Assembly (NCBI RefSeq): GCF_033473495.1
Contig: NC_088936.1
Coordinates: 1,054,001-1,118,000 of the forward strand
Reading direction: 5' to 3'
Length of the DNA: 64,000 nucleotides
From: Cercospora beticola
Lineage: Eukaryota > Ascomycota > Dothideomycetes > Mycosphaerellales > Mycosphaerellaceae
The stretch's first letter is position 1. Each line of letters starts with the position of its first letter. The translations under genes and the position numbers were made by a program. Below, piece after piece: positions 45,044-63,658 of the stretch. The notes under the pieces were generated by a model. The model had not been told where the DNA came from and made no database searches. It worked only from the letters and a program-made list of their open reading frames with translations.

Positions 45044-46356
45044 TCACGGTCTGCCGTTTCCCCTCTTACCCTCACGGTACAACTCGTATTCGTACGACGA
45101 GAACAAGAAGGGAGCCACACCTTTGAGGTCATTCTCGAAGAGAGGCATGCTGGCGTAGTACTACGGACGTTAGTCAATAATCAAGACCTTCTGCGTGCTG
45201 GTGTACTTACCTCGAATGTTCCATTCGAGCTCAGACTCCCTGTCTGTGCCGTCCACTCCCAGAACAGAGCACCATCCTCTTTTCTCGGCTGCGCGAACGT
45301 CTCGGTCATAAGCTCATAGCCATCGAGAGCAGCTTTGAGATATTTCCGGCCACTCAAGTACCCGAGACGGACACCCTTGAGCAGGCCGTAGACGAACATG
45401 GCAGATCCAGAACTTTCGATGTAGTTGCCGGATTTCTTCTCGAGGCCAGGATCCATCACATTGTACCACCCCTTGTAGACTGGATCTTGAGCTGCTACGA
45501 CAGCATCGGCAACCGATTGGAAGTACGCAAGCAGTCTTGCGCGACCCTCGTGACTCTCAGGAAAGTAATCGAGTGTGTCAACAAGAGCCATGATGTACCA
45601 CCCGACAGCTCTGCCCCATACGTGAGGCGCAGCACCAGTCTCTGGATCCGCCCAGATAGAGTTCTTGCTCACATCGAAGCCGTGGACCGGAAGCCCATTG
45701 GTCCGTTCCCTGTCAACCAACGTTCCAGCATCGATGAGATCGAACTGCAAAGCAATGTCATCCCAAGCAGTGTTGTTCTCAGGTTGGAACTCGTGAGTCC
45801 ATCGAGCATAGAACACATCGAGCATGTAGATACCATCCAACCACATCTGATCGATGTAGACAGGATATCTATGGTAGAAACCACCATCTGGCGTCCGGAA
45901 CGAACGATCAATCTGGTCCTTCAGGCTGTCCGCGGCGATTTTGTAGATCTCCTCGCCCCCGGTGAGATTGTACATGTCCAAGAAAGAGTGGCCAAAGCGG
46001 ATGTCATCGATCGAGTTGCTGTTGTTGTGTAGCAGGATCTCGCCGTTCCATGCTGGATAGAGGACAGTGTCGACATGTCGCTTGACATAGTCCCGGTACC
46101 TATCATTACCAGTCCTTGAATATGCGAGTAGAACTCCCGAGAGGTATGCCGATACCGTGTAAGCGTAGGTTGGTTCTACACCGTGTTTGATCTGGGAGTC
46201 GGCCATCCAGGTGAGATAGCGAGGCTTGCCATGAAACCTCCCTGGATCAATCTTCTCACCAGGAGGGATCCTGAACCATCCGTTAGGAAGTTCAATCTTG
46301 GCTGAGGCGACAGCGGCACTCGCGCCAGCTAAAGCAAAAGTGGCGATGAATCTCAT
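45044..46356 (-). CDS. GH105 unsaturated rhamnogalacturonyl hydrolase (EC 3.2.1.172)
   Basis: Two exons: 45211-46356 and 45044-45160; 50-bp intron; 420 aa. A signal peptide (MRFIATFALAGASAAVASA) precedes an alpha/alpha six-barrel domain. Family motifs are DDIRFGHSFLDMYNLTG, YIDQMWLDGIYMLDVFYARW, HVWGRAVGWYIMALVDTLDY, GNYIESSGSAMFVYGLLKG and the C-terminal YYASMPLFENDLKGVAPFLF in exon 2. GH105 enzymes remove the unsaturated galacturonyl residue left on rhamnogalacturonan oligomers by PL4 or PL11 lyases. This enzyme would therefore act after the PL4 lyase at 21161-22864. Secretion is supported by the signal peptide. Confidence 0.93.
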
Positions 46357-46817
46357 GTTGGCTGAGGGCTGAAGATGTTGATTTCTGTGCCACCAACGAC
46401 CTTATCGTCTCATATATAGTGGCTCCGAGAGTGGACTGAAGCTCTCATAGCCTCGGAATATTATCAGAAGCCATGTTGGCCAAGACGACTTCCAAGGTCT
46501 TGAGTGAAGCTGCAGGCGTGGATACGGTGCGCCACTACTGGGAAGAACATATCCCTCATTACGCGTGAGTGAAGAGAATGTCTGTGGCCAGTGATGTAGC
46601 AGGCTTCCCCGCATACGCTTTGCATATCAGATGCGATCAGACGCAGCGCTGTGACTTGGTTTGGGGGCACAATACAGAACGTTTGAGCTGTATGTGCGGA
46701 GATGGTGCTTGGCAACAGACGGTCTCCACTAGCGGGACAGATGTGGCCGAGCGAACGTCTCCCGGCCTGATATGTCTTTGAGAGACTAAGGCATATGAGC
46801 TCTTCAGCTTCGTGAAG
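46357..46817. other. Intergenic stretch
   Basis: 5' flank of GH105 and 3' flank of the kinase remnant. No feature is recognised. Confidence 0.5.
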
Positions 46818-47397
46818 TCAGAAATCTCTGAACCATTCGTGCTCTAAAGCCTGGGGCGCCGTCAATCTTTCCTCCGGGTCGAAATTTGTGAGCCCAAGAA
46901 CGAGATCTTTGAATGAATCTGCCTGTTCCACGTCGATTCCTTCCCAGAGCCGGAATGGCCTTCTGGGCTGACCTTCTGCAAATGCGCTTGCGACTGCTGT
47001 GAAGATTTGGACCCATTCAGAGTTGTCGCCGAGGTATCGAAGAAATGCGTTTAGATCTTTCTCCTCCTAGACCAAAGGAGAACATATCCGAAGGCTTGCG
47101 AACTGGCCCCATCGCGTGAGCTTCGGGACTCCGCCACATCATGTTGCCGACTTGTGCACCCATAACGGCTGAGTCTGGATAGTGGAGATAAGCTGCGTCT
47201 TCCAGATCTACCAGTCGGACTCTCTCAACCTTGAATCCACATTCCGAGGATGCCACATCGATCATAGTGTTGTTAGGCTTAACATCTGCCCAAGCCTTAG
47301 CACGGCATTTCAAAATGGACTGATGCGCGCCATGGCTGGCGACTAAGTCAGCGCGTTGTTCCGCCGATGCCGACAGATCATGCACCTTGCACGGCAA
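46818..47397 (-). pseudogene. Protein kinase catalytic-domain remnant
   Basis: Minus-strand sequence still reads as kinase: ADVKPNNTMID (the catalytic HxDxKxxN loop with its His changed), RVRLVDLEDAAYL (DFG equivalent DLE), GNMMWRSPEAHAMGPVRKPSDMFSFGL (activation segment and helix F). Then, in another frame starting near 47055, EKDLNAFLRYLGDNSEW, LTNFDPEERLTAPQALEHEWF, and a stop at 46818-46820. The junction lacks roughly 40 residues expected between helices F and G and changes frame. The N-lobe with its Lys and glycine loop is not found. It resembles a fungal family of small kinases that is often duplicated. No active kinase can be made from this locus. Confidence 0.7.
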
Positions 47398-48672
47398 ACG
47401 CGTGTCAGCGGATGTCCCTTGTCTTGGATGGTCTCATGTATTGTATAGACGCGTTCAGAGTCCCCGGTCACACTTTCGGGAATGGTGAGAATCCTTTGCA
47501 TGAAAGGGGCCAATTTCTGGCGAACGCATGGCTAGTGACACGGCGGATGTGCTGATTGTGGTGCTTGATGAACGACTTGGCCTGAGAGGCGCAGAGCCAG
47601 CGCATGTGGTCGGTTGAGTGGTGGCAGCGAGAGCGAACAGAATTGCGAGGTCGTCAGAAGCTGCTGGGTGACCATAAGTCGTGGCAGTGGACAAAAGTCG
47701 CGACATCGAATCTCCTACTCCACGCCTTGAGTTCGTGGCTCATCTCCATCCAAACAATCTCGCTTCGCATCACTTCCCACAGCTCGACGAAGGATTTCAA
47801 GTGCAGCAGAATGCAGCTCTGGTGCGTCAAGGAGGCGAGCTGCCGGTTCTCGCGAGGGCATGCATCAATGCGCGTTTCCAATGCAATATGTGCATGGCAG
47901 CATACAAGACACGCACATGAACGAGGAAGATGATTACTGCGAAGATGCAGAGAAATGCCGCCAGCACTATCAGGCTGATGAGTACCATCTATGTACGTGG
48001 CAGAGATGATGGTATACCTGGGACATGAACATCTCGAGCCTGCGGTTGTGGCCTGTCGTGTACCGCAACAGGCGTGGTCGAGATCCAGAAACGAGCTGGT
48101 ACTGGTTTCTCTACCTGTTTCGGCCAGCCAAGATGTCGTGCAAGCCTTGAGTTCGCCTACATGCATTTCCGGATAGGATATGCAGAGCGGAAGCTGCGGA
48201 GAAATATCCGACCTTGCAGCAGTTTTCCTCTCAATACCACACATTTGACTGCAAGAGTTGCACGTATTTGGGGGTCACCGTCACACGGACAGTTGCGTGC
48301 TTGCCCGAAGCGCCCGGATTGTTCTCCGGAGCGAATTGTCTGACTCTAATAAAGCCCACAATGCTGGGGACACTTCAAAGGAAGCGGAGAGACATGACTT
48401 CAGACCTATCTTGGAGTAAACGAGGATAGCCACGCAGCTGCAGATGCACGCTTCTCCGCAGCAAAGCTACCTAGCCAAGCCGGAAGAACTACTCGCTACA
48501 GGCTTGGTTGTTTCCAAGACCTGGGGTGCCCATGGGGTAGCTCGACTGACTCCACACACGGTCAGCTTCACAACTCTACTTATGTCGATCATGTCGCCGG
48601 GCCACAGTCATCTCTCTGCCTTTAACGTATCTGCAAGCTCGTAAACTTGCCGCAGTTGTCCCTTTCGCCGCC
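47398..48672. other. Intergenic stretch
   Basis: Upstream of the kinase remnant and of the MFS gene. A 196-codon minus-strand frame (47654-48244) has no family signature. Nothing else is recognised. Confidence 0.45.
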
Positions 48673-50266
48673 ATGGCTCATATTGAGAAAGATGGAAAGC
48701 ACGAGGTGGAAATGCACGAAATCATGCCCGAGAAAGGCATAGATGGAGTCGCCGTGGAGAAAGACGCGTTCGGTGCGCGCAAGAAGATCGATCCCAAAGA
48801 GATCAAGCTCGTGAGAAAGCTCGACACATACATCATGGTCAGTCAACAACTGTGATCGTGGTGTCAGATCTAATACTTCGCAGCCTACCCTCTGGATCAT
48901 GTACTTCTTCAATTTCTTGGACCGCAATGCCATGATCAACGGCAAGCTAAACGGTTTGGACAAGGACCTTGGCCTCACTGGAACGCAATACAACACATGT
49001 GTTTCGATCCTCTTTGTCGGGTATCTCCTGGGACAAGGTGAGTTCCGAAACTCCTGTACCTTTGGCCAAAGCTAATATCCCCCTTGTGCCTAGCAACATG
49101 CTTCTGAACAGAGTCCGGCCATCTATATTCATGTCCGGCTTCATGATGGCGTGGTCAATCGTCAGTCTCTTGACCTACCTATGCCACGACTTCGGCACGA
49201 TGCTGGCCTGTCGATTCTTGCTCGGAATTACAGAGGCTCCGTTCTATCCTGGAGCATTGTATATGATCAGCATGTTCTACACTAAGAAAGAGTTGGCAAC
49301 CAGAATGTCCATCATGTACACTGGCAACATGCTTGCAAGCTCCTTCTCTGGACTCATCGCAGCACCAATCTTCTCTGAACTGGATGGCGTCAACAGCCTT
49401 TCTGGATGGCAGTGGCTGTGAGTTCACTCTTCTAGGCCATGGTACGACAGAAACTGACTGCGTGCAGATTCATTATCCAAGGAGCATTTTCCATCGCCGT
49501 CGCTATAGTTGCGATATTCGTGCTGCCAGACAGCCCGCTCAAAACTCGTTGGTTGACTCACGAAGAGAGACAGCTCGCTCATCATCGCATTTTCGATGAC
49601 ACCACTGGCCGAAGATCGGAAGACTCCAGCGTGTGGAAAGGCCTGCGTGAAGCAGTCATGGATCCCAAGACATGGCTGTTCTGCCTCATGGACAATCTCC
49701 ACCTCTCTGCGAACGGTTTCAAGAACTTTCTTCCATCTGTGGTCAAGACATTGGGCTTCAACACGACTATCAGCCTTGCTTTGACCTGCCCGCCATATCT
49801 TGTTTCCGGCTTCATCAGTATTTGGGTGTCCTGGAGCTCGGGCCGCTACAACGAGAGGACCTGGCATACCACCATCTCGAAGCTTGTCGCCTGTGTCGGG
49901 TTCGCCGTTGCCGCTGGAACAACTAGCGTCGCAGGCCGTTACGTTGGCATCATGTTGTTCGTAGGAGCGACATACGGCGTCAACAATATCGTGCTATCCT
50001 GGGCCGCATCAACACTCGGGGAGACTGATGAGAAGAAAGCTGTCGCCATCGCCATGACCAACACTTTTGGCAATCTGGCATCTGTCTACACACCCTACCT
50101 CTGGCCGGATTCCGACTCCCCTCGCTTTATCAAGGCTTTCTCGGCCAGCATTGCTTTCTCGCTCGGCGTTTGTATCTGCGCGTGGGCCATGCGGATTATT
50201 CTGATGCGGAAGAACAAGAAGCTGCTGAGAGAGAACCCAGGGGCTGTCAAGTTGTGGGTGTACTAA
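48673..50266 (+). CDS. MFS permease, allantoate/anion:cation symporter type (Dal5-like)
   Basis: Exons 48673-48837, 48884-49037, 49087-49417 and 49468-50266; 482 aa if intron 2 is removed as drawn. Motifs of the ACS family: MYFFNFLDRNAMINGKLNGL, then QYNTCVSILFVGY, RFLLGITEAPFYPGALYMIS and SIMYTGNMLASSFSGLIAAPI. Twelve membrane helices are expected. Intron 2 has donor GTGAGT and branch GCTAAT. The position that restores the conserved GQ-VPSNMLLNRVRPS motif ends in TTG rather than AG. The next usable in-phase AG would delete eight conserved residues. The gene may therefore be impaired. It opens the putative metabolite cluster; substrates of relatives include ureides, vitamins and carboxylates. 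Confidence 0.8.
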
Positions 50267-50644
50267 GTGCTTGCGGCTGACCAGGAGTCGATGCTCGGAC
50301 GAACGATGTCACTGGCAAATGCGACCTTGTGTGGGTATAGCTGACGCTTCAACCCTATTCTACGCACTGAGTCTCAAAAATTTGCTCTATCCTCAATGCT
50401 CTCACGATTGGAACCCACGATGCCTGTTTGCTTACACTGTCTTCGGAGACAAATTGGTGCCGTGGACGCCCTTGCGCCGATGATAATGGCTTTTGTGGGG
50501 TTTATCGTTCTTCAGCGAAATCGAGCAGGGCGTCGTTGACAGCTAGATGAACCGGACAATGATTTCGAACCATGCCGAATCTGCCAACGACGCACCTCTC
50601 TATGTCTATAGATACTAATCTTTCTCTCTCGATGCTGAGTGCCA
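50267..50644. other. Convergent intergenic spacer
   Basis: 3' flanks of the MFS permease and NRPS-like genes. No feature is recognised. Confidence 0.5.
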
Positions 50645-53600
50645 CTATCCGAACACTGCTGCTCTCAAATCCTCCAAGGAGAGCTCTTGCAGTTTGGAAT
50701 TATTCTCCGCCACGAATCGAAGTGCCTTGATACAGATTTCAACCAATTCGACCTTGCATCCATTGCTCCTCTGTTCATCTAGCCACTTCTCATGAAAGCC
50801 GATTGCCACAGTGGCTCCATCTTCTCCATGGCGATTGGCATTTACGAAACACATGTGGAAGGCGCGCATGGACATTGCTTCTGCCTTGACACCGGCGATG
50901 AGGGGGCCGTCGTTGTCCGCGGAAGACGATTCATCTTCCACGTCGTTGTGAAACCTCCAGGTGAACGCAGCAGTATGGCAAGCGAGTCGATCCATCTCGT
51001 TGAGGCAAATCTTGCGCTCGCGGATCTGTGTCATAGCCTTGAAGTGAAGCAAATATGTCCTATTCACCGGGCTCATTAGCATGTTCATTGACATTCCTTT
51101 TTTCTTTCACAAAGCTCAACCCGGCGTGGACTCACCATAAATCTCTCGCTGCCAAATCCAAAACCAACGGCTGGGGCTGATAACTCCCAGTCACCGCTCT
51201 CACGCTATCCAGCCGCTCTCCGTCTCCTATCGTCCTCAATGACACTGCGCGGTCGTACACCACACTGCCGCTCGTGAATACAGAATCCCTCTGAGATAGC
51301 CACAAGGCCAGACTCAACGAAAATACCGCCTCCACGACAAGCGGAAGAGTCATATCTAGCACAACAGTCAGGTCACGGAATGGCGCATTGACCGACTGCA
51401 TGTCACCAAGAGGCACCAATTGGTCCTTCGTCCAGGCTTCCGGATTGACGTACGCAGGAGCTTTGATTTCACTCCACTTCTCTTCCCTTTTCATCGAAGC
51501 AACTTCCTTTTCCCAAAACTCCAACGCCGATGCCGGATCGTGTCCGATTGGGAAGCGAGACACGTAAGCAGAATAAGGAGTATAGTGGTCCAGCTCTTCG
51601 TTCTGATAAGCTTTGGAAATCGTGTCGAGTATCAACCGCCGTCCCTGCCCTTCTGTGAACAGATGCGATTCGATGAAAGCAAGTTCCAGCTCCAGACTAT
51701 CTCCTTCGCCGATCGAAACAATGTACAAGACAAGCGTTCGAGTTCCGACCCGATGGCGATACGTGGAAAGTTCTTCATCCATGAGCTTTGTAGCTTCCTC
51801 TTCCGCTGCACAGGAGAACTCCCGGATCCGCGGGGAATCTGGGTTCGAGTATTCCGGCTTCTCCTGTAGGATGATCCAGCTGGAAGCAGAGTCATCGTAG
51901 CCCAGCTTCCAACGAAAGGACTCCTCGTGCTGCCGGACTTTACCTAAAGTCTGCAGCAAGCGAGCTTTGTCAGTGCCGTTTGCTAGACGATAGCGGTTCA
52001 TTTGCCACACGTCGTTATTGTCGAGATGTTCCTTCTTGGTAGAGCCTCGTAAAACTTTGAGATACATGTTCTGATTCGCAGAGAGAGGGATGGCGTCTTC
52101 GAGATCATCGATCTTGATGCCCGCTGAGTTGCAAATCTGCTCGAGCTGATCCTTGGACGATCCTAGCAACGAGAAAGGTGCCACTTTTGTCGGAGCGTCA
52201 AAGCCACCTTGAGATTTGGTTGTGCCTTGCTGAACCAGATCGACAACCTCCTCGACTGTCGGGTAAGCGAAGAGCGCTGCTACGCCAAGTCGTACGCCAG
52301 TCTGCCTTTCGACTGCAGAGGAGATTTTGGACAGGCCCATGGAGTCGGCTCCCAATGCAAGCAAGGTAGTGCTCTGTGATTCTTTTGCTTGACCCGACTT
52401 GATGCCTAGGGCCCTGTCGATAATAGCATAGACATCATCTTCACTTGACTTTTGCTTTCCATCGCCTGCTTCAGCTGAATTATCCTGTCCAAATAGCTGA
52501 GAAAGGACCTTTCTCTGGATCTTGCCCGTTGGACCCTTGGGTATCTTGTCCTCGCAAAAGTGTATCTTTTTGGGAATTTTGAACGCCGCAAGCCTTTTTT
52601 CCAGCAATTGTTGCAGTTTCGCCTCGTCCAAACTGGTATTCGGCTTAAGAACCACTGCGGCCTCCACCTCCTGCCCGTAAAAGTCATCAGATACAGAGAA
52701 GCTCGCCGCTTCCTTCACCTCATCACTGGCCAGCATGATAGCCTCATCGACCTCTACAGGCGAGATCTTCTCTCCACCCCGATTGATCATCTCAGACAGC
52801 CGCCCGATGAGTGTCAACCTTCTTCTATCATCGGTAGACAATACACCACGATCACCTGTACGAAACCATCTCGCCTCGTTGCCTCGCTCATCTGTGCCCT
52901 GCCAAAACGCCTTTTGATTGACCTCGTCGCTAACACCATCGTACCCACCCATTACATTGTCTCCACTCACACAGACTTCGCCTTCCTCTCCAAGTGCAAC
53001 CGCCGTATTGCCTTCGCTCCATATGCAGATCTTCGTTGCACCAGATTCTGGCCCTACACTTCCCGAGCCAAAGTCGTCCAGTCGGTTACTGCACATCTGA
53101 TGACTCGCTTCAGTCATCGCATATGCTTCGATAACAGGGCAATCGAATCGTTTTCGGAGGGCCTCAAATACGGTTGGAAGCAGAGGACTGGAGCACGATC
53201 GAATGAACTGAATATCCAGAGTACCGCTTTTCGGGTCAGGTGCGGCCAGAAGTGTTTGCAAGATTGAGGGTGTTCCCGTCACCCAGTTGCAGTCATTCTC
53301 TTGGAAGTCGGACCATGCTCGAGAAGCATCGATGGCTCCACCGGGAGGTATGACGATGCTGCCGCCTGTTACGAGCGGCGCGAGAAGTGCGGCTACGATG
53401 CCATGAATGTGAAAGAGCACTTGTAGGAGGTATGTTCGATGAGTTGAGTCGAGCTGGTAGGTTTCGGCTACGTTGCGTGCCCCACGAAGGAGATTAGAGT
53501 GCTTGAGGGGAACGGCCTTGGGCTTGCCGGTTGTGCCTGATGTGTGCAGGTATAGTGCTGTGTTGTCGTCTAGATTAGGAGGCGATGATTTTCCTCGGGT

Positions 53601-54075
53601 GTCGCCTTCTCTAAGCCCGTCGAGACTGATTTCGATGATCTTCTGGTTGGCAGAGGTTTCTTGCAAGGTGGCTTTGGTCTTGTCATCACCTCCTAGCACT
53701 ACGACTTTTTTTATGCTCAGGTCTTTGAATAGAGGCTAGAAGCAGACCATGTTAGTTGCAATTCTGATCAGCAGTCTCAGCACTAACCTCGAACTCAGCT
53801 GCTGTATATGCTGGATTGAGCGGTACAGCGGCGGCTCCATCTGCCCAGAGAGCCAGTAGTCCGACAATCAACTCAGGACTGTTTGGCATCACAAGAGCCA
53901 CATTCTCTTTGGACTGGAAGTTTGCCACAGATCTGAGAAAATCAACGTTTCCCTTGAGACTGTTATAAGTCGTCTTTGCAGCGCTTCCTCTAAGAGTCCG
54001 AATGGCCTCGTTTTCGGGCGATTGTCCATCATTTCGTCTGAAAACTGCATCGTACAAATTCGTCGATGTACCCAT
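50645..54075 (-). CDS. NRPS-like enzyme: adenylation, carrier and degenerate condensation domain
   Basis: Three exons: 53788-54075, 51136-53735 and 50645-51059; introns of 52 and 76 bp; 1100 aa. The adenylation domain (about 1-510) resembles Pcs60-type acyl-CoA/oxalyl-CoA ligases, with LHTSGTTGKPKAV (about 160), AYAMTEASHQM, RWFRTGDRG, GRLSEMINRGGEKISP and the catalytic Lys in GPTGKIQRK (about 501). A carrier domain carries LGADSMG, with the phosphopantetheine serine near 561. From about 645 a condensation-like domain begins AIPLSANQNMYL. Its HHxxxDG motif reads SHLFTEG (about 786): the second, catalytic His and the Gly remain, while the first His and the Asp changed. The protein should load an acid and pass it to an unknown partner. 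It shares a short divergent promoter with the asparagine-synthetase-like gene. Confidence 0.85.
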
Positions 54076-54359
54076 TATTGAAGAGTCTGGTGTACAGTTG
54101 TGCTCAAAACGATTGACGATAATGCGTACGGTTGGTCAGATGCGACTGACAACGGTCGTCTCGTAGTAGTGCCTGAGGCTATGCAGTCAGTCTTGTCACG
54201 CTGGCATCAAGCCTACCAATCCATTGCGGTTGAGTTGCGCAATCGTCATGTGGCTTGATTCTGTTTGGCAGTTTCGTGCTGGCCCGAATAGGGCTAACGT
54301 CAATCTGCTTTGCCTTAATAGAGAAATATTACTCGACGATCGATTACGTTGACGTATGA
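54076..54359. promoter_or_regulatory. Divergent promoter between NRPS-like and asparagine-synthetase-like genes
   Basis: Only 284 bp separate the NRPS-like ATG (54075) from the first in-frame codon of the asparagine-synthetase-like sequence. CGATCGATTACG and GATCGATCGGCG near 54340-54370 are small partly repeated CGATCG-rich motifs; their role is unknown. The space is too short to encode the missing glutaminase domain. Confidence 0.4.
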
Positions 54360-55991
54360 TCGATCGGCGAGTTCAACGGCAAGCTTTTGGTTTCAACCCA
54401 GTGCAAGGGCATTACGAGTTTCCTGGATAAGCAGCAATTGAAGTGGGACGCACAGTGTATGGCCGAAGGGTGTGGGCACTATGGTAATCGCTCGCTATTC
54501 GAAGGGATCCACAGAGTCCCAGCAGGCCATATGTTAGTGGCATATCAAGGTGCACCCCAGTCTATCCAATTCAGACCTTATTGGGAATTGCAGTATCCTT
54601 CTAATGAAGGCCGTTCGGACAAGCGCACAGAAGACGAGCTCATCATAGAATTGCGAGAACGTTTAGTGGAAGCAGTGCGGATGCGACTGGTCTCAAGCGA
54701 CGTTCCTGTGGGATTGTTGCTTAGTGGCGGTGTCGACAGTAGTGCGGTCGCAGGAATCGCCGCGCATCTGAGCCATCAGCAAGAAACACCTCCAGAGAAG
54801 TTGCCAACATGCTTCACGATTGCGTTCCCAGACGACAGCGATCTGGATGAATCGGCCATTGCTGTTCGGTCGGCAGAACATATCGGCCTACCGATCGAGA
54901 AGATTGTAGTCGATGAACAGGTTTTGGCCGATCAATTCGAAGAATCTTGCTGGCTCGGCGAGGCCCTCATGTGGGACCTGCAGCATATCGCTAAGAAGGC
55001 AATGAGTAAGCATATTCGCTCGCGTGGGCTGAAAGTTGTATTGAACGGCGACGGATCCGATGAATTATTCGGCGGATACAGCTTTTTCGTCGATAGCCGC
55101 CTTCAGGCTGAAGATCGACGTCGCGACCCCAACATGAAGGAGCCCGACAGTTTGGATGACTTGAACCAAATACGAGAAAAACAAGCTGATGCCTCGCGGT
55201 GGTTCGGTGGCGAGCAAAATACCAATGCAGAGCAGGACCCCGCTGCTCAGTCAAACAACATACCTGCGCCTTTTTGCAACCTGGCAGTGTTGGATCCTGC
55301 CGATTGGCTTCTGCCCGAGCTCCGCGACATAAGCACTCCCTTGACTGCAGTGGCTAACACCTTCACCGAGAAGGAGGCTGCGAATATGAAGGATCTCCAT
55401 CCTCTACACCGCAGCATGACAGCTTGGAACAAAACAATTCTCCCAAACATGGTTATTGCTGCAATCAGTGACGGCGCAAAGATGTCGCACTCGGTAGAAT
55501 CACGACCTCCGTTCCTAGACCATGTCCTCTCCGAGTGGGCACAAAAGCTCCCTATTGATGTGCTTGTCCACGTGGAAGAAGGCGGTGGAGTCACTGAAAA
55601 ATGGCTTTTCCGTCAAGCTGTCCGGCCGTTTGTCACAGAAGAAGTTTATCAACGACGGAAACACCCCTTCTCAGCACCATTTCGGTGGAAACCCGGAGGA
55701 CCGCTGCAGAAGAAGCTGGCATCTTTGATCACGAAAGAGAACGTTGCGAAGCTAGGCTTCGTAGACTGGGATCGATGTGAAGATCTTGTCGACAAGGTTT
55801 TCCATGACAAGGACGAGGGAAAGTTTCGTAGTGCCATTTGGCTGGCGCAGATCATATCGATTGGATCTCAATTCGGGGTGCAGACATGGCAGAGGTCAAC
55901 AAATGGTGGGCCTTCAGAGGTGAAAACCAATGGCGAGCACACGAACGGAGACGAAACACACGGGACTGTCAACGGCCACGTCGAGACTTGA
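54360..55991 (+). CDS. Asparagine-synthetase-like protein lacking the N-terminal glutaminase domain
   Basis: The frame opens after a TGA at 54357-54359. The first ATG with good context is 54459 (MAEGCGHYGNRSLF), giving 510 aa. Homology begins earlier, at GKLLVSTQCKGITSFLDK, which is the end of the class-II glutamine amidotransferase domain. About 190 upstream residues, including the catalytic N-terminal Cys, are absent. The synthetase domain is well kept: PVGLLLSGGVDSSAVAGIA (ATP pyrophosphate loop), VVLNGDGSDELFGGYSFF, KMSHSVESRPPFLD, EKWLFRQAVRPFV and RKHPFSAPFRW. Family enzymes activate a carboxylate with ATP and form an amide. Without the glutaminase domain it could use free ammonia or an amine substrate, as beta-lactam synthetase-like proteins do, or it may be a truncated pseudogene. 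Neighbours suggest a biosynthetic role. Confidence 0.78.
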   Translation, partial: SIGEFNGKLLVSTQCKGITSFLDKQQLKWDAQCMAEGCGHYGNRSLFEGIHRVPAGHMLVAYQGAPQSIQFRPYWELQYPSNEGRSDKRTEDELIIELRERLVEAVRMRLVSSDVPVGLLLSGGVDSSAVAGIAAHLSHQQETPPEKLPTCFTIAFPDDSDLDESAIAVRSAEHIGLPIEKIVVDEQVLADQFEESCWLGEALMWDLQHIAKKAMSKHIRSRGLKVVLNGDGSDELFGGYSFFVDSRLQAEDRRRDPNMKEPDSLDDLNQIREKQADASRWFGGEQNTNAEQDPAAQSNNIPAPFCNLAVLDPADWLLPELRDISTPLTAVANTFTEKEAANMKDLHPLHRSMTAWNKTILPNMVIAAISDGAKMSHSVESRPPFLDHVLSEWAQKLPIDVLVHVEEGGGVTEKWLFRQAVRPFVTEEVYQRRKHPFSAPFRWKPGGPLQKKLASLITKENVAKLGFVDWDRCEDLVDKVFHDKDEGKFRSAIWLAQIISIGSQFGVQTWQRSTNGGPSEVKTNGEHTNGDETHGTVNGHVET

Positions 55992-56075
55992 CGGGTTCTA
56001 TTGAGACTCGAACCATAAATCCGTAATTAGTTCCGACTCGTTTCTCATTCTGGCTCTAGCCATACATCTTTCCGT

Positions 56076-57724
56076 TCATAGCTCGATATGGAATGGAGCA
56101 AATTCCAGCAGCTTCTGCTCGTGAGCGTCTGTTGCAAGCGAAGCGATCTTCTTACCATCTTTCTTGCCCGAAATGAGTCGAGGGACGACACCGAGAGGGA
56201 AGTAGGCCGAAGGTTGCTGATGAACAAGTCAGTCGGTCTTAAATCATCAACAGCAGGTGAAAAGGAGCGGAACCGCGCTCGCAGCAGCACATACCTGATA
56301 CTCCGGCAGCTCATTCGCCAATCGCTGCCTCAAATCCTGCTCATATCGATCCGTTGCTTGTTGGTATTCTTCTTTGCTCAGTAATTCGCCCTTGAACTGC
56401 ATCGATGAGGCATGGTAAGCCAATACTAGGGCTGGCGTTTCTCCTTCCGCGAATTCATGCACGAATAGATGTGCAAAGTCGATGTCCGGGACACCAAATG
56501 CAGCATCCTCAGTATCGGCTGGCTCAATGCGAAGCGAGAATATAGACAAGCGATTGTCGGTCCGGCCTTCGAAGTGATATAGGCCGTATTCGTCTACCTT
56601 TGCGACATCTCCTGTCCTCATGGCATAGTATTCTTTCGATAACATATTCGGCGGTGGAAGAAACTCAGGCGACGAGCTCGGACCCATGTAACTTTCTGTG
56701 ATCTGGGGCCCGGAAAGCACAATCTCTGAAGTCTCCGGATCGATCATGGCGAGATTCTCCCCGAATGGTTTGCCAATCGGAGGGATCACCAAGTCCTCAA
56801 TGGGAGACCTGACATCGAACAACATGTTGAGAATGCCAGTCTCGGTCAAGCCATATGCGTTAACAATGCGTGTGTTCGGACATTGCGCAACCCACCGTGG
56901 GAACTGGCTTGGTCGGGGTGATTCGCCGGCACAGACGAGAATTCGCAGTCTGGCAAGAGCGTCCATTGGTATAGCGCCTAGCAAAGACGGAGGTAAAAGC
57001 ACATATGTGCAATTATGTCGGCAGATCAGATCACTTCGGCAATGTCTTCCGGTGAGCCTTGATGACAGTAGACCACCGCACCACCATGAAGAAGCGGACC
57101 GAACAGATCGAGGTTACCGCCGTCCCAGATCCACGGAATCACATTGCAAACCCTTTCTTTGTCTGAGAATCCGAGAGCCGATGTGCATGCCATCAGCGAC
57201 GTAGAGAGTTGCTTATGTTTGTATGGAGTTGCTTTGGGAGGACCAGTCGACCCGCTGGTGAAAAAGACAAGTGCCAGGTCTTCAGGTGAACTCTCATCTG
57301 TCGTGGCGTCGATTCCAGTCGACTTCAGCCATAGCGACGAGCAAGCTGTAGTTCCCAAGGCCTTGGCCAGTGCATCAGCACTCTTTGCATCGTCTTCGGT
57401 AGTTCCAGATACGATAATTTTGGGAGTTCGACCAAGGCTTGTAGCTTGTTTATGCAGACGCTGCACAGGTGATGAAGGGTCGAGGGGAACATGTATTCCT
57501 CCTAAGCGGAGAACAGCCAAGGCGAGCGCTGCACCTTCAACAGACTTTTTGCCAAAGAGAGGTATGATAAAATCACCCTTTTGGACGCCAGCATCTTTCA
57601 AACCCGAGACGTAGCGGCTGATCAGGGTGTCAAGTTGTCGATATGTCGTTCCATCGATGGCTTCGTTATCAGGAAAAGCTTCAATGCTGCGCTTCACCAG
57701 ACGGGGGAGAGTTTCTGCGACCAT
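56076..57724 (-). pseudogene. Stand-alone AMP-forming adenylating enzyme with 5-bp duplication
   Basis: The frame from 57724 (MVAETLPRLVKRSIEAFPDN) encodes the N-half of an NRPS-type adenylation domain: FFTSGSTGPPKATPYKH, VIPWIWDGGNLDLFGPL, PEDIAEVI, then a TGA. The match resumes in another frame as RHNCTYVLLPPSLLGAIP, AGESPRPSQFP, VNAYGLTETGILN, MRTGDVAKVDEYGLYHFEGRTDNR, to RLANELPEYQ. It ends in a last exon (56076-56216, after a 78-bp intron) reading QPSAYFPLGVVPRLISGKKDGKKIAS. At the break the bases ATCTG occur twice in tandem (57023-57033 on the plus strand). Removing one copy restores a continuous domain of about 520 aa. It would activate an amino or carboxylic acid as adenylate. As written it is truncated at about 232 residues. 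Confidence 0.78.
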
Positions 57725-58048
57725 TATTGCTGTGAATAGGACTTCATCAACGACTATAACTTTGTTGATGTTGTAGCATGGTTCAATCCCGCAGGAGGGC
57801 CTACTCTGGAGGAATGTCTAAAATAAACTTCGAGCCCAAAAGCTCCGCGCTGGCGTTGAGGTGGACCCTCTGCAGCCACGATCAGCGTCGTACCAAAACA
57901 TCCAGCGGTGATAACGTACGAGGATCAACACAGCGTCGATGTGCTGATCGAGCCGCATGGTATAGCAACCACTGTGGCATGCTCCTGATCTGCTCAGTAT
58001 TGTGCAACATTCCCAATTTGATCTCCGTCGATCTTCGGTTCCACGAGG
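57725..58048. promoter_or_regulatory. Divergent promoter region
   Basis: 324 bp between the adenylating-enzyme gene (minus) and the second MFS transporter (plus). No specific site is recognised. Confidence 0.4.
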
Positions 58049-59512
58049 ATGCCACTTGATGAAGAGAAAGTCGAAGCAGATTCAGAACACCAAAAGTCTT
58101 CGTCTATCGATCCGCAACAATGGTCTTCTCGAATCAGACTGCGGGCGTCGGTCATCATGGGACTTTTTGCATTTCTCGAGCCATTTGCATCGTCAATCAT
58201 CGCTCCGGCACTGCCACTGGTTGCTGATGAGTTCAATATCACTTCTTCCGTTGAGCGAAATGTATGTTGAGCAAACTCATCATCCGTTCAAGGTCCAAAG
58301 ACTGACGCCTGCAGCTCGTGTTGTCCGCATTTGTGTTACCATATGCCCTCGGCGGCATACTGCTAGCACCCATGTCCGAGAACTTTGGTCGAAAACCCGT
58401 ACTCTTAATATCGGCAGTGCTCTTCCTTGCCTTCACCATCGCTTGTGGCGTTGCTCAAAGTAGCGCTCAGCTCATTACGTTCCGTGTGTTCGCTGGCTTG
58501 GGAGGTTGTGCACCTCTGGCAGTAGGAGCAGCTATGATAAGCGACCTGTATACGCCTCGAGAACGAGGCTCACCTATGGCCATTTACATGGCATTGCAGC
58601 TCGCTGGTCCTTCCGTAGGTCGTATTTGCTATATCTTTGCATCAGTGACTAACATCTCGACAATAGTTGGGGCCCATAGTCGGTGGCTGGGTAGCACAAA
58701 CGATCAACTCGTGGCGTTGGTCGTTCTACATTTGCGCCATTGCCACCGCTGTAGTCTTGCCCTTTGGAGTTTTTGGCTTACCAGAAACATATGCGCCACG
58801 CCTGAACCGCACGACCAAACAGCCAGTGTCTCATTATTTGCGCTCCATATATCGCCCGGTTGTGTTGCTTGGAACGCAGCCCATCATCCAGGTCCTTGCA
58901 GCTTATGCGGCCGTGATATTTGGTGTCTACTACCTGTTCCTCACGACCATCGCCAGCGTCTTTGAGAACACGTACGGACAGTCAGTCGGCGTTGCCTCGC
59001 TGCACTATCTTGCGCTCCTCGCCGGTTTTGCATGCAGTGTCTTAGCAAGCGGCAAAGTCATGGACATCATCTACAAGAAGCTGGCGTCGAACGGTCCTCG
59101 GCCTGAAGCTCGGATTCCATATCTTGCTGCGAGTGGCACTCTACTGCCTGCCGGCTTGCTTGTCTACGGGTGGAGTGCTCAGAAGCAAGTTTTCTGGTTC
59201 GTGCCGGACATAGGATTATTCCTCGTGGGACTAGGCATCCTGGCTCCTCTGGCAGCCATTCAGCATTACGTCCTCGACTGCTATGCCAAAGGAGGCTATG
59301 CTGCTTCAGCAATAGCCGGTATGAATGTCGCAAGGTTTCTGGCAGGTTTCGGGTTTCCGCTGTTCGCGGATGTTCTGTTTGATGCGTTGGGATTAGGCTG
59401 GGGAAATTCAGTTCTGGCTCTGATAGCGTTCATTGTTGGGACACTTTCCGTGTCACTATGGGTCATCGGACCACGTCTGCGGGAGAAGAGCTCCGTTGTA
59501 GCGTGCGCATAA
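58049..59512 (+). CDS. MFS drug:H+ antiporter (DHA1 type)
   Basis: Three exons: 58049-58261, 58315-58614 and 58667-59512; introns of 53 and 52 bp, all phase 0; 452 aa. Twelve hydrophobic helices. Hallmarks are FLEPFASSIIAPALPLVADEF (helix 1), YALGGILLAPMSENFGRKPV (motif A), FRVFAGLGGCAPLAVGAAMI, LAGPS-LGPIVGGWV (motif C, antiporter signature, across intron 2) and WRWSFYICAIATAV. Such transporters export metabolites or drugs across the plasma membrane, and cluster-linked members usually export the product. This is one of the few undamaged members of the cluster. It is convergent with the DUF6536 gene. Confidence 0.9.
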
Positions 59513-59672
59513 GGCTTCCAAAACCAAACGCTGCCCTCCTTGGGCATCTCGGATTAGCCAAAATTCACGCTGCCAGCGTTTAAAAGGCATGTCCAAGGCA
59601 TGTTCTTGAATTTCTTTTGGAAAAGGCCAAGTTTTGAACAGTTCTAGCTCCGATCCAGAGGAAATCGACAGA

Positions 59673-61781
59673 TTAAGCAGTCAGGCCCTGCCGACAACCA
59701 GCATATTTTCTGTTCGGCTCCAGCTCGACGACTTCTTCACTCGTGAATGAGCAATGACCAAGTTCTTGTGTTCCCATGCGAGGGATCTCTCCCCACATGA
59801 GGGGCAGTGTTGAAGCTTTCTCATCCTCCTGCGGCCTGTGGACCGCGGTCGCAAGTGCAAACGAGCAGCTTCCCGCAATCGGCATATTGCTCGCAAGCTT
59901 TCTGAAACCCAGTCCGACAACAATTAGTAGCAGGCAAAACGCCAGCACGACGGCTACCAGCATAGGTACAAGACTGATACCTACGCCAGATTCGTCGGCT
60001 ACGAGTGGTTCGATTGTCTGCGCTCCGAAACCAGCACGATAAGGCACGACTCGAACAAGAAACAGCGACTGCGAAATCAGCCAGTGCAACAACGCCGTCG
60101 TCACCAGTAAAGGCAAGCTGTATTTAAATGGCAGCTGCAGCCAGTATGTAGTGCGTTGCGTTCCTCGAGGCTCGGTGACCCGAAGGCCCTTGCGTACGAT
60201 CGCATAGCCGCTGAATTCATAGGCCAGGTGCATACTCGTGAGGAGTCCATTGAACCCCAAATAGCAACACGAGAGGACGATCTGGGGGGTTTTGACCAGT
60301 AAGACCGAAGCGATGAAGCCTTTCGTGCCATTCGTCGGCAACTTCGTTTCGAGCGTCGATGTCGTGTCTTCGACGAAGAATTTGCCGGCAGCAATTGCCT
60401 CCTGGATACTGAGTCGCTCAGGATCACGAGTTGCCCTTATGAGGAAAAAGGCAGCGGCACAGAGGGACACGATGCAAATCGCGAGACTAGGCACCCATTG
60501 CTCAATGTCAACGGCAGCAGCCCATCGCCGCTTCTTGGTAGGCTTACGCGCTTTCTGTCCCAGGGCAGATGGCTGCAGATATCCTCTTCGTACTAAGCTC
60601 CGTTTTTGAGGTTGGGTAGCAAGCTGATCAAAGCGATCCTCCCTCTCGTCCCTGACAGATGACTTGTCAATGAGACAGTTTCCCATCGTGTTATCGTCGA
60701 CATCTTGAAGCCAGCTAGCCAGTGCATCCCCGAATGTAACTAGAGATCCACTTCGCTGGTGCCAGAGATGCCAGACCATCACGGACATCTTGATAAAATT
60801 GCAAACGATGATGCCAACAAGAATGTACGTCGAAAATTGTACCTTGCAGTGCCCTGGTTCTCTTTTGGCCATGCAATACTCAAGATACTTCCCTGACAAC
60901 AGCCAGCTATGACTATGGCTGTCACGCTGGGTCTCGTGGACAAGATCGCTAATACTACTCGGCCTATACAAGCTCAGTAATTGTGCGCACTCGCGCTGCT
61001 TGAATGATTCGGCCCGTGAGCTCTCGAAAGAGAGGCGAGCGCTTCGGTGACGTGATGACCGAGCCACTTACCAGTACATTGGCGTATTCTCGGCTGCAGC
61101 TCCTGATATGCCCAGATCAGCCCAGTTGAGAACATCCGAATACTCACCGCTACGATCGCTGTCTGTTTCGTTAACCTTCACGCTTGGATCGACAATCGCA
61201 AAAACGTGAGAGTGTTCCGTGAGTAGATCACTGCCGTAGACATCGAGGCACTGCTGAGCCTCAAGACGAACGAAAGCGGCCTCGTCTGCAAGGTGCATAG
61301 ACCGCAGTCGAGTGGCGAGGGAGCTGTTGTAAGCAAACAGATCTGAGCTGTCCTCCAGTCCAGCTGAGAGCTGCTTCGAAAAGGCCTCGAAGTCGATCTT
61401 ATCAGATCTTAGAATCCCAGCTGTTGCCGTAACCAGCTGTGCGTTCTCGATAGAATACAATTGCTTGAAAATTTGCAGAATTGTATAGAAAGTGGATCGG
61501 TACACTGCTGAGCGCCAGAAGCGCCCAGGCGATGCGACGTCGCCACGAGATTCGAGTAGAATAAGGATGCGGTGGCTTGACCCAGAATTCAATAGCAGGA
61601 CTTGTGCATACACTTTGCACATGTACATTCGGACCCAACCCCACGCAGGAGAATGCACTCCGCCATGGGGAGCCTTCCTTTCAGCGTCTAGAACTGCTTT
61701 CTGCAGAGGGACCTGCACAGCGTGGCGAGCTACACCTGAGGCACAAGTTGCTGCCAAGTCCCCAAGGCGGCATCGGAGCAC
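59673..61781 (-). pseudogene. DUF6536-type membrane protein, probably disrupted
   Basis: The C-terminal two thirds are clean: exon up to about 61013, with EYCMAKREPGHCKVQFSTYI, NFIKMSVMVWHLW, PQIVLSCCYLGFNGLLTSM and PLLVTTALLHWLISQSLFLV. It joins across a probable 51-bp intron (donor GTAAGT just after the PMY codons near 61066) to a frame with EAQQCLDVYGSDLLTEHSH. Further 5' the conserved family segment RRRIAWALLALSSVPIHFLYNS lies in a different frame (61402-61644). The still earlier part, with the AVQVPLQKAVLDAERK segment, is back in the first frame. Two frame jumps, near 61450 and between about 61580 and 61690, are therefore implied, and the first membrane helix was not found. The family is fungal-specific and multi-spanning, of unknown function. 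Confidence 0.62.
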
Positions 61782-62299
61782 GTTCGCCGACGTCCGCCCC
61801 CGATCTCGGCGTGGTGTTCAGCTTGTGGCTTGTTCCTACCTCCTATTGTTGCGTATCGACAGTTTCCCACAATCTTGACCACTTGCTATACAGGGTTGAT
61901 CGAATTGCACCTTGTTCGCGATGGTGTACTTCTCTCCATCAGCTAATATGAGACCAGTGCAGGCGTGGGCATTTCGACCCGTATTCGAACAAGACGTTGC
62001 AGAATCACCAACGTTCCTATCCCTTCATGGGCAGAACACACCATGCTCTTAGGAATGACTCAGGTCGCCGTCTACAACGCGAACGGTTCGAGCTTCTTCA
62101 TGGATAATAAGTGTTCAACAAGAATATGCAAGCAAAGATAAGCACTCGCGACTGTGGACCCGAATCCAAGGCACACCATGAGCTAGCATGGTGGCGCAAT
62201 AGCTGCCTCGATCAGATATCATCTCTAAGCTCGCACAACGCCTCACATCCTCGCAGACGTGCACAAGCAGACAGCCAAAGCTTCAGCTCCAAGCATTCA
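61782..62299. other. Divergent intergenic region
   Basis: Between the DUF6536 gene and the monooxygenase. It may include the degraded 5' end of the former and the promoter of the latter. No other feature is recognised. Confidence 0.4.
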
Positions 62300-63658
62300 A
62301 TGGCCATCGATCCCGAATACCCTCTGCTAAGAGTAGCCATAGTGGGCGCAGGCCCAGGCGGCCTCGCAACGGCAATAGCTTTGCAACAGATCCCCAATGT
62401 TGAAGTGACGATTTATGAGCAGGCCAAGGTGCTCCGAGAAGTTGGCGCTGGTATCAGCATAGGCCAAAATACGTGGAACGTCTTGGAATTGCTGGGCGTC
62501 GCGGATGACTTGACCAGTGGGCATCCTACTGTGACAGTGCTGAACCTGTGAGGGTGTCCAATGTTCCGACCTGGCTCGCTCGTGCTGACTGGGATCGCAG
62601 AAATGGTGCTACCGGTGAAGAGCTTTCGAGGTTCGAGAAGCAGACTGACACCAAGCGACTACCAATACGAACCCAAAGAACCAAGCTGCAATCTGCCCTG
62701 CGATCTCATGTGTCTGAGGAGAGACTCAGACTAGGCACCAAAGTTGCCAGCATCGAAGACCTCGGGCAGGGCGGAGTGCTCCTGAGATTTGCAGATGGCT
62801 CAGAAACCGCTGCTGATCTCGTAGTTGGTGCTGATGGTATTCGTTCTGTCGTTCGAGACGCTGCGTGGAGAGATTATGAGCTCAAGTTCACTGGCACCAC
62901 TATCTGGCGAACTCTACTACCTTGGGACGCTGTGAAAGATCTTGACCCGAGATTCGCAACGACGGCATGGTGGCACACACCTACCACGCACGTCTACTTC
63001 TCACCAGTGGGTGAAGGCTTGTGGGAAATTGCAGCTCGAGCATACCAAGATCCTGCGATCCATGCTGCTGACAAGCACAGCTGGGGCGTACCTGTGACAA
63101 ATGAGGTCGTGGAATCTCATTTTGGCGTGAGCATTGTAGGCAACGAAAACAGAGACGAGAGCTGACAACAAATCTGAACAGGCTTATCTACCACAGGTCC
63201 GCGAAGCTTTGCAGAGAGTGCCAGAAGGAGGTTGGAAAGAATTTGCAGCTTTCGCCGGCCCAGAGCTCGACGACTTGACAAACTGGAACGACAAGATAGT
63301 GCTCGTTGGAGACTCATCACATGCACTTTCCGGAGCATTTGGATCTGGTGCAGGATTTGCCATGGAGGACGGCTGGGTGTTGGCTCAAGCGTTGAAAGCG
63401 AGTCGTAACGACATTCATCAAGCGCTTCCCATTTTCAACAGGATACGCCTGCCGTACTATTCCCGAATGTACGCGCATCTCGCTGAAGTGGCCGAGCGGA
63501 GAAGCCAGAATTTGCAGAAAGTTGTCAACCCAACTGCGGAAGATTTGGTCCGCAATAAAGTCATCCAGCCGGGAGGACGTGACATGCAGTGGATTTACGG
63601 TAACCATATCGGTAGGGTGTGGGAACAGTCCACTGCTGGCATAGAAGCACAGCTCTGA
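62300..63658 (+). CDS. FAD-dependent monooxygenase (salicylate-hydroxylase type)
   Basis: Three exons: 62300-62547, 62601-63126 and 63182-63658; introns of 53 and 55 bp; 416 aa. Start MAIDPEYPLLRVAIVGAG is the FAD dinucleotide-binding GxGxxG loop (VGAGPGGLATAIAL). Further group-A flavin hydroxylase motifs are EVGAGISIGQNTWNVLELLG, RTQRTKLQSALRSHV, ADLVVGADGIRSVVRD (DG motif) and VLVGDSSHALSGAFGSGAGFAMEDGWVLA (second FAD motif GD). It would hydroxylate an aromatic or related ring using NAD(P)H and oxygen in the cytosol. As the last cluster gene seen, it could tailor the product. Length and spacing match the family and no lesion is visible. Confidence 0.92.

What the first reader, a model, noticed from the sequence alone, without database searches (positions are those of the whole stretch)
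48673..63658. Putative secondary-metabolite cluster that appears to be decaying
Seven adjacent genes make a coherent biosynthetic set: two MFS transporters, an A-PCP-C enzyme, an asparagine-synthetase-like amide former, a stand-alone adenylating enzyme, a DUF6536 membrane protein and an FAD hydroxylase. Two activating enzymes plus an amide-forming ATPase, with no full NRPS or PKS, is an unusual combination and could make a small amide-linked product. Four genes carry independent lesions, suggesting loss of the pathway in this strain.
Basis: partly seen in the sequence, partly recalled or inferred. Interest (0 to 1): 0.8.

Follow-up and report, generated by a model that had tools for sequence, protein, structure and literature searches.

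The report
Decaying small-molecule gene cluster in fungus
In the sugar beet leaf-spot fungus a group of neighbouring genes that probably once made and exported an unknown small molecule now carries three clear defects and one probable one, while relatives keep some of the same genes whole; gene loss of this sort is known in related fungi, but the enzyme set may be undescribed.

Summary
The window is from Cercospora beticola, and seven genes of the stated kinds lie together. Most frame breaks are ordinary introns: three genes (A-PCP-C, second MFS, FAD mono-oxygenase) look intact, and the A-PCP-C model equals a deposited 1100-aa protein. Three genes are clearly damaged: the asparagine-synthetase-like gene lacks its N-terminal glutaminase domain (about 165-175 codons); the stand-alone adenylating enzyme changes frame in its core and no intron explains it; DUF6536 lacks a recognisable N-terminal half and changes frame. 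The first MFS is probably damaged at one splice site. C. zeae-maydis has longer versions of the first two, on contigs of identical length; further hits on equal-length contigs suggest that the AsnS, A and A-PCP-C genes form a conserved core. An identical downstream fragment of the adenylating enzyme is annotated in what appears to be a second C. beticola assembly, so the loss is probably not confined to one strain. Surviving parts show no faster evolution, so the lesions look young. The A-PCP-C loading domain is closest to oxalate-CoA ligases, suggesting an oxalyl-type acyl unit and an amide product; that is inference. Right of the cluster lie genes for an aldoxime-type dehydratase and a nitrilase.

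The parts
48673..50266 (+). MFS transporter 1; introns 48838-48883 and 49418-49467 normal; second intron (5' site 49038) has no ordinary in-frame 3' site: probable splice lesion
   Evidence: Pfam MFS_1 on pieces; intron enumeration; of seven paralogue loci scanned three show the motif at this place and two of them (L009, L013) read through it without a break
50645..54075 (-). A-PCP-C NRPS-like enzyme, three exons (54075-53788, 53735-51136, 51059-50645), intact, 1100 aa
   Evidence: equals deposited P0121; Pfam AMP-binding, AMP-binding_C, PP-binding; structure matches
54366..55991 (+). asparagine-synthetase-like gene, 5' truncated: synthetase domain whole, glutaminase (GATase) domain absent
   Evidence: three relatives align only from window 54366 on; no trace of the missing part; Pfam PF00733 only
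56076..57724 (-). stand-alone adenylating enzyme; frame change between about 57011 and 57035; intron 56294-56217 and last exon normal
   Evidence: C. zeae-maydis P0242 and P0245 match in two frames; no bridging intron; P0241 shows downstream fragment and last exon
58049..59512 (+). MFS transporter 2, three exons (introns 58262-58314 and 58615-58666), open throughout
   Evidence: Pfam MFS_1; intron enumeration
59673..61680 (-). DUF6536 membrane protein; C-terminal part open after intron 61071-60964; DUF6536 remnant 61548-61459 in another frame; N-terminal half not recognisable
   Evidence: alignment to paralogue L001; Pfam DUF6536 positions 107-139 of 154 only; other copies in the genome
62300..63658 (+). 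FAD-dependent mono-oxygenase, three exons (introns 62548-62600 and 63127-63181), open throughout
   Evidence: PDB matches tropone 2-monooxygenase, 6-hydroxynicotinate 3-monooxygenase, salicylate hydroxylase; FAD_binding_3; intron enumeration

Best explanation
A small secondary-metabolite gene cluster of Cercospora beticola that is turning into pseudogenes, probably beyond this one strain. In relatives the core is an A-PCP-C enzyme, an asparagine-synthetase-like amide former and a stand-alone amino-acid-type adenylating enzyme. Proposed chemistry (inferred): the A-PCP-C enzyme, whose A domain is an oxalate-CoA-ligase relative, loads oxalate or a similar small acid on its carrier; the stand-alone A enzyme activates an amino acid; the C-like domain joins them; the AsnS-like enzyme turns a carboxylate into an amide with ammonia from glutamine; the FAD enzyme hydroxylates and the MFS proteins export. 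In this genome the AsnS-like enzyme has lost its ammonia-supplying domain, the stand-alone A enzyme is split by a frame change, DUF6536 is decayed and one MFS probably mis-splices, so the route should not run. Shown: gene content, lesions, longer relatives, signs of co-location of the core. Inferred: substrates, order of steps, loss of product.
For: A-PCP-C model equals P0121, 1100 aa, named C. beticola. AsnS: P0002 (C. zeae-maydis), P0003 and P0007 align from their residues 175, 164 and 97, all starting at window 54366; of the 41 rows P0002-P0042 all 21 with 600 aa or more list the glutaminase domains, and the 5 rows without them (P0014, P0017, P0029, P0032, P0033) have under 460 aa. Stand-alone A: P0242 residues 1-251 in one frame and 229-482 in another; no intron bridges it. 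DUF6536 remnant only. Core co-location: 4 of 9 strong non-beticola A hits (P0242-P0250) share an exact contig length with an AsnS hit (359586, 20270, 49531, 14201); A-PCP-C hits share 49531 and 10863 with AsnS hits, besides the window's own contig; 0 coincidences in the other 77 of the AsnS rows 43-120. Oxalate-CoA ligases are the best PDB sequence matches of the loading domain, E 1.7e-87, 1.5e-80 and 2.6e-79. P0241, with another longest contig (4,891,443), is identical over 224 residues and in the last exon. No branch acceleration.
Against: No expression data. The A-PCP-C enzyme, second MFS and FAD gene are open, and the AsnS-like synthetase domain is open over its whole length and not evolving faster, so part of the set may still be used. 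No C. zeae-maydis A-PCP-C was among the 120 listed hits, so the unit may differ there. Co-location rests on equal contig lengths, not on reading those contigs, and 5 of the 9 strong A hits share none. The MFS1 lesion could be a very short intron. Oxalate as substrate rests on similarity only.
Confidence: 0.78

Rival explanations
1. Remodelled, still working locus: the AsnS-like protein without its glutaminase domain uses free ammonia or another amine, the A-PCP-C, FAD enzyme and second MFS still act, and only dispensable members were lost.
For: AsnS-like ORF open for 543 codons with a whole PF00733 domain; in-frame ATGs at 54459, 54531 and 54681; a database protein of 486 aa, identical to the window, starts at the second of these (P0001); no faster evolution.
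Against: The partner stand-alone A enzyme is broken, DUF6536 and probably MFS1 as well; 21 of 21 relatives of 600 aa or more among rows P0002-P0042 keep the glutaminase domain.
Confidence: 0.15
2. Assembly or sequencing errors: the lesions are not in the organism.
For: A frame change and a splice-site change could each be base errors; the reads of the assembly were not available here.
Against: P0241, from a contig of another length, has the same downstream A fragment; loss of about 165-175 codons and of the DUF6536 N-terminal half is not a base error; the other three genes of the set show no such breaks.
Confidence: 0.05
3. Not one cluster: unrelated neighbours (transporters, DUF6536, FAD enzyme) beside a two- or three-gene core, with unrelated decay. 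This overlaps with the best explanation, since the core would still be a decaying unit.
For: Only AsnS, A and A-PCP-C showed signs of co-occurrence in relatives; MFS-type matches are many in this genome (72 with one MFS1 exon).
Against: All seven are contiguous, and transport and tailoring enzymes are typical of such clusters (recalled).
Confidence: 0.3

Closest known systems
Pseudogenised secondary-metabolite genes of Cladosporium fulvum, including the dothistromin-type cluster (PMC3895014, passages seen)
   Same: A related plant pathogen (relationship recalled); some genes of a cluster disrupted while others stay whole; a relative keeps the working set.
   Different: There polyketide synthases and multi-domain NRPSs; here an A-PCP-C enzyme, an AsnS-like amide former and a stand-alone A enzyme, without a full NRPS or PKS.
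Oxalate-CoA ligase (Pcs60 / AAE3) family
   Same: A domain of the A-PCP-C enzyme is nearest by sequence and at the top, nearly tied with others, by fold; peroxisomal-CoA-synthetase-like fungal proteins with 43-49% identity over the A domain fill much of the list.
   Different: Fused to a carrier and a C-like domain, so the acyl group should go to the carrier, not to CoA (inferred).
Glutamine-dependent asparagine synthetase (AsnB) and amide-forming relatives such as hydroxyamidotransferase 7ylz
   Same: PF00733 synthetase domain; the motif SGGVDSS stands in the window's protein.
   Different: Glutaminase domain missing in this genome; relatives of full length have it.

Membership tests
Fungal biosynthetic gene cluster | biosynthetic, tailoring and transport genes contiguous | tested here: met
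Fungal biosynthetic gene cluster | co-location kept in relatives | tested here: inconclusive
   signs for AsnS, A and A-PCP-C by equal contig lengths; contigs not read; not shown for MFS, DUF6536, FAD
Fungal biosynthetic gene cluster | co-expression and a product | not testable with these tools
   no expression or metabolite data
Pseudogene (stand-alone A enzyme, AsnS-like, DUF6536) | coding lesion against longer relatives | tested here: met
   for DUF6536 against paralogues only
Pseudogene (MFS1) | coding or splice lesion against relatives | tested here: inconclusive
   only a 34-nt intron without branch-point match keeps the frame
NRPS condensation domain | Pfam PF00668 over its cut-off | tested here: not met
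   no hit for P0121; 18.3 and 25.7 bits against a cut-off of 30.6 for relatives P0124 and P0123; P0123 carries PF00668 in the precomputed list
NRPS condensation domain | HHxxxDG active-site motif (motif recalled) | tested here: not met
   C. beticola reads ESHLFTEG; one His (H787) nearly invariant in the 21-row alignment A1
NRPS condensation domain | fold | tested here: inconclusive
   whole-protein model pLDDT 67.1, pTM 0.44; best Foldseek match the A-PCP-C fragment 5u89 but rmsd 23.7; the second look tests mainly residues 1-517
Oxalate-CoA ligase family (A domain) | closest by sequence | tested here: met
Oxalate-CoA ligase family (A domain) | uses oxalate | not testable with these tools
   no assay; oxalate-contact residues not checked
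Glutamine-dependent asparagine synthetase | N-terminal glutaminase domain | tested here: not met
   absent in the window, present in full-length relatives
Glutamine-dependent asparagine synthetase | C-terminal synthetase domain PF00733 | tested here: met
   E 3.5e-71

The most novel reading that the evidence does not exclude
An undescribed fungal amide pathway: an oxalate-ligase-type A-PCP-C enzyme with a one-histidine C-like domain, a dedicated amino-acid-type A enzyme and an asparagine-synthetase relative make an oxalyl- or similar acyl-amino-acid amide in Cercospora and its relatives, and the sugar beet pathogen has recently lost it.
Probability: 0.3. Interest if true: 0.6.

Novelty: new member of a known kind. 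Interest (0 to 1): 0.4.

Why it matters
Clusters caught while decaying show which metabolites a pathogen no longer needs. Here the loss could be dated and mapped, because population genomes of C. beticola from wild and farmed beet exist (326 genomes, PMC12034460, passages), and relatives keep genes that could reveal the product. The enzyme set itself, an oxalate-ligase-like A-PCP-C plus an AsnS-like amide former, may point to a compound class not yet known from fungi.

Tried and rejected
Introns read as lesions: rejected as lesions in three genes, since GT-AG introns of 52-76 nt with a branch-point match restore every frame in A-PCP-C, MFS2 and the FAD gene. Missing AsnS N-terminus hidden nearby: not found; tblastn of the first 165-200 residues of five relatives gave no match better than E 0.25. 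Faster evolution of the broken genes: not seen. Continuation of the cluster to a second AsnS-like gene to the right (C2:1136132, 37% identical): not supported, a U3 snoRNA-associated protein gene lies between. A structural test of the C domain alone: not done; the whole-protein model is of middling confidence, so the C part is inconclusive by fold. Papers: searches listed nothing and one search listed two papers that I did not open; some searches gave listings only, apart from passages of PMC12034460; led to passages of PMC3895014. C. berteroae P0122 shows the A-PCP-C enzyme at 90% identity, but no C. berteroae row was named for AsnS or A, so its state there is unknown.

Full report
What it is. 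The window lies on contig C2 (5,229,751 bases) of a 36.07-Mb, 10-contig genome. A protein equal to the window's A-PCP-C enzyme is deposited as 'Peroxisomal-coenzyme A synthetase [Cercospora beticola]' (P0121), and its longest contig has the same length. So this is a fungus, and broken reading frames must first be tested against introns.

Gene by gene. I enumerated GT/GC-AG introns of at least 30 nt that keep the frame in six of the seven genes. A-PCP-C (54075-50645, -): introns of 52 and 76 nt give P0121, 1100 aa; intact. MFS2 (58049-59512, +): introns of 53 and 52 nt; open throughout. FAD mono-oxygenase (62300-63658, +): introns of 53 and 55 nt; open throughout; the PDB matches include tropone 2-monooxygenase (best, E 1.7e-15), 6-hydroxynicotinate 3-monooxygenase and salicylate hydroxylase. 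For MFS2 and FAD I had no orthologues to compare. MFS1 (48673-50266, +): first and third introns are normal (46 and 50 nt), but at the second the only in-frame intron is 34 nt and has no branch-point match; of seven paralogue loci scanned, three show the motif at this place and two (L009, L013) read through it. I call this a probable splice lesion.

Firm lesions. The AsnS-like gene aligns with three relatives only from window 54366 on; the first 174 residues of C. zeae-maydis P0002, 163 of P0003 and 96 of P0007 have no counterpart, and five relatives' N-termini leave no trace nearby (best E 0.25). This removes the glutaminase domain: in rows P0002-P0042 all 21 proteins of 600 aa or more list PF13522 and PF13537, and the 5 without them are under 460 aa. 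The stand-alone A enzyme matches P0245 in one frame down to 57029 and in another from 57011 on; C. zeae-maydis P0242 does the same with overlapping ends (57724-56927 and 57035-56274), and no intron bridges the change. Its last exon is sound and equals the end of P0241. DUF6536: the C-terminal part aligns with paralogue L001 over 60920-59793 at 31% identity, but of the 154-position Pfam domain only positions 107-139 are found, in another frame, while the three best other copies in the genome cover positions 1-144, 36-153 and 41-152; a fourth place (20-135) holds two stops.

How old and how wide. P0241, named C. beticola and with a longest contig of 4,891,443 bases, is a 270-aa fragment that starts just after the frame change; 224 residues and the last exon are identical to the window. 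The own genome has only one such copy, so I take P0241 to be from a second assembly; it fits the same lesion there, though I saw only its protein. In a relative-rate count with two agreeing outgroups, AsnS changed at 9 sites in C. beticola only and 10 in C. zeae-maydis only (12 and 12 with other outgroups), the two A pieces at 7 against 6 and 8 against 14 (6 against 6 and 4 against 10 with other outgroups); no test was significant, the smallest p being 0.18. The lesions are therefore recent against the split of the two species, or the remaining parts are still constrained.

Is it a unit? Protein hits come without context, but rows give the longest contig. Comparing all 120 listed AsnS rows, 15 of 16 A rows (one has no contig) and all 120 listed A-PCP-C rows, AsnS and A share 359586 (C. 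zeae-maydis), 49531, 20270 and 14201; AsnS and A-PCP-C share 49531 and 10863 besides the window's contig; all three share 49531. Of the nine strong A hits outside C. beticola (P0242-P0250), four share a contig length with AsnS; the other five contigs are 2.6, 2.6, 7.0, 8.7 and 73.9 kb. Among AsnS rows 43-120, P0086 (the 10863 contig) set aside, 77 rows gave no coincidence. The A enzyme has few relatives: 16 hits in all, ten above 200 bits, the window's own species included. No C. zeae-maydis A-PCP-C was among the 120 listed.

Known context. In Cladosporium fulvum seven of 23 core secondary-metabolism genes appear to be pseudogenes or truncated, and two pseudogenes make its dothistromin-type pathway non-functional (PMC3895014, passages). 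So the phenomenon is known; the gene set was not met in the listings of the paper searches, which cover only an open-licence library.

Verdict. A real, decaying small cluster, probably lost beyond this one strain; interest moderate. What would raise it is the product.

Noticed in passing
L023:94-2834 (window coordinates about 63694 to 66434): Directly right of the cluster lie a haem-containing dehydratase (PF13816, E 1.6e-80; aldoxime dehydratase type, name recalled) and a CN_hydrolase (PF00795, nitrilase type), followed by a Zn2Cys6 transcription factor: perhaps an aldoxime-to-nitrile-to-acid pair.
   Followed up: partly
L025:802-2775 (C2:1135802-1137775): A second, full-length AsnS-like gene with glutaminase and synthetase domains, 37% identical, lies some 26 kb to the right on the same contig, near an MFS gene.
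   Followed up: partly
window 51135-53735 and relatives P0123-P0126: Outside Cercospora the best named relatives of the A-PCP-C enzyme are Xylariales-type fungi (56% whole, 72% over 48% of the query) and none is a C. zeae-maydis protein: patchy distribution, possible horizontal transfer.
   Followed up: no
P0129-P0172: A-PCP-C enzymes with the same unusual one-histidine C-like region occur in Cytospora, Diaporthe and several Mycena species; their function is unknown to me.
   Followed up: no
window 45184-46401 and 47020-47433: Left flank: a GH88 family hydrolase gene and a protein kinase fragment, not obviously part of the cluster.
   Followed up: no
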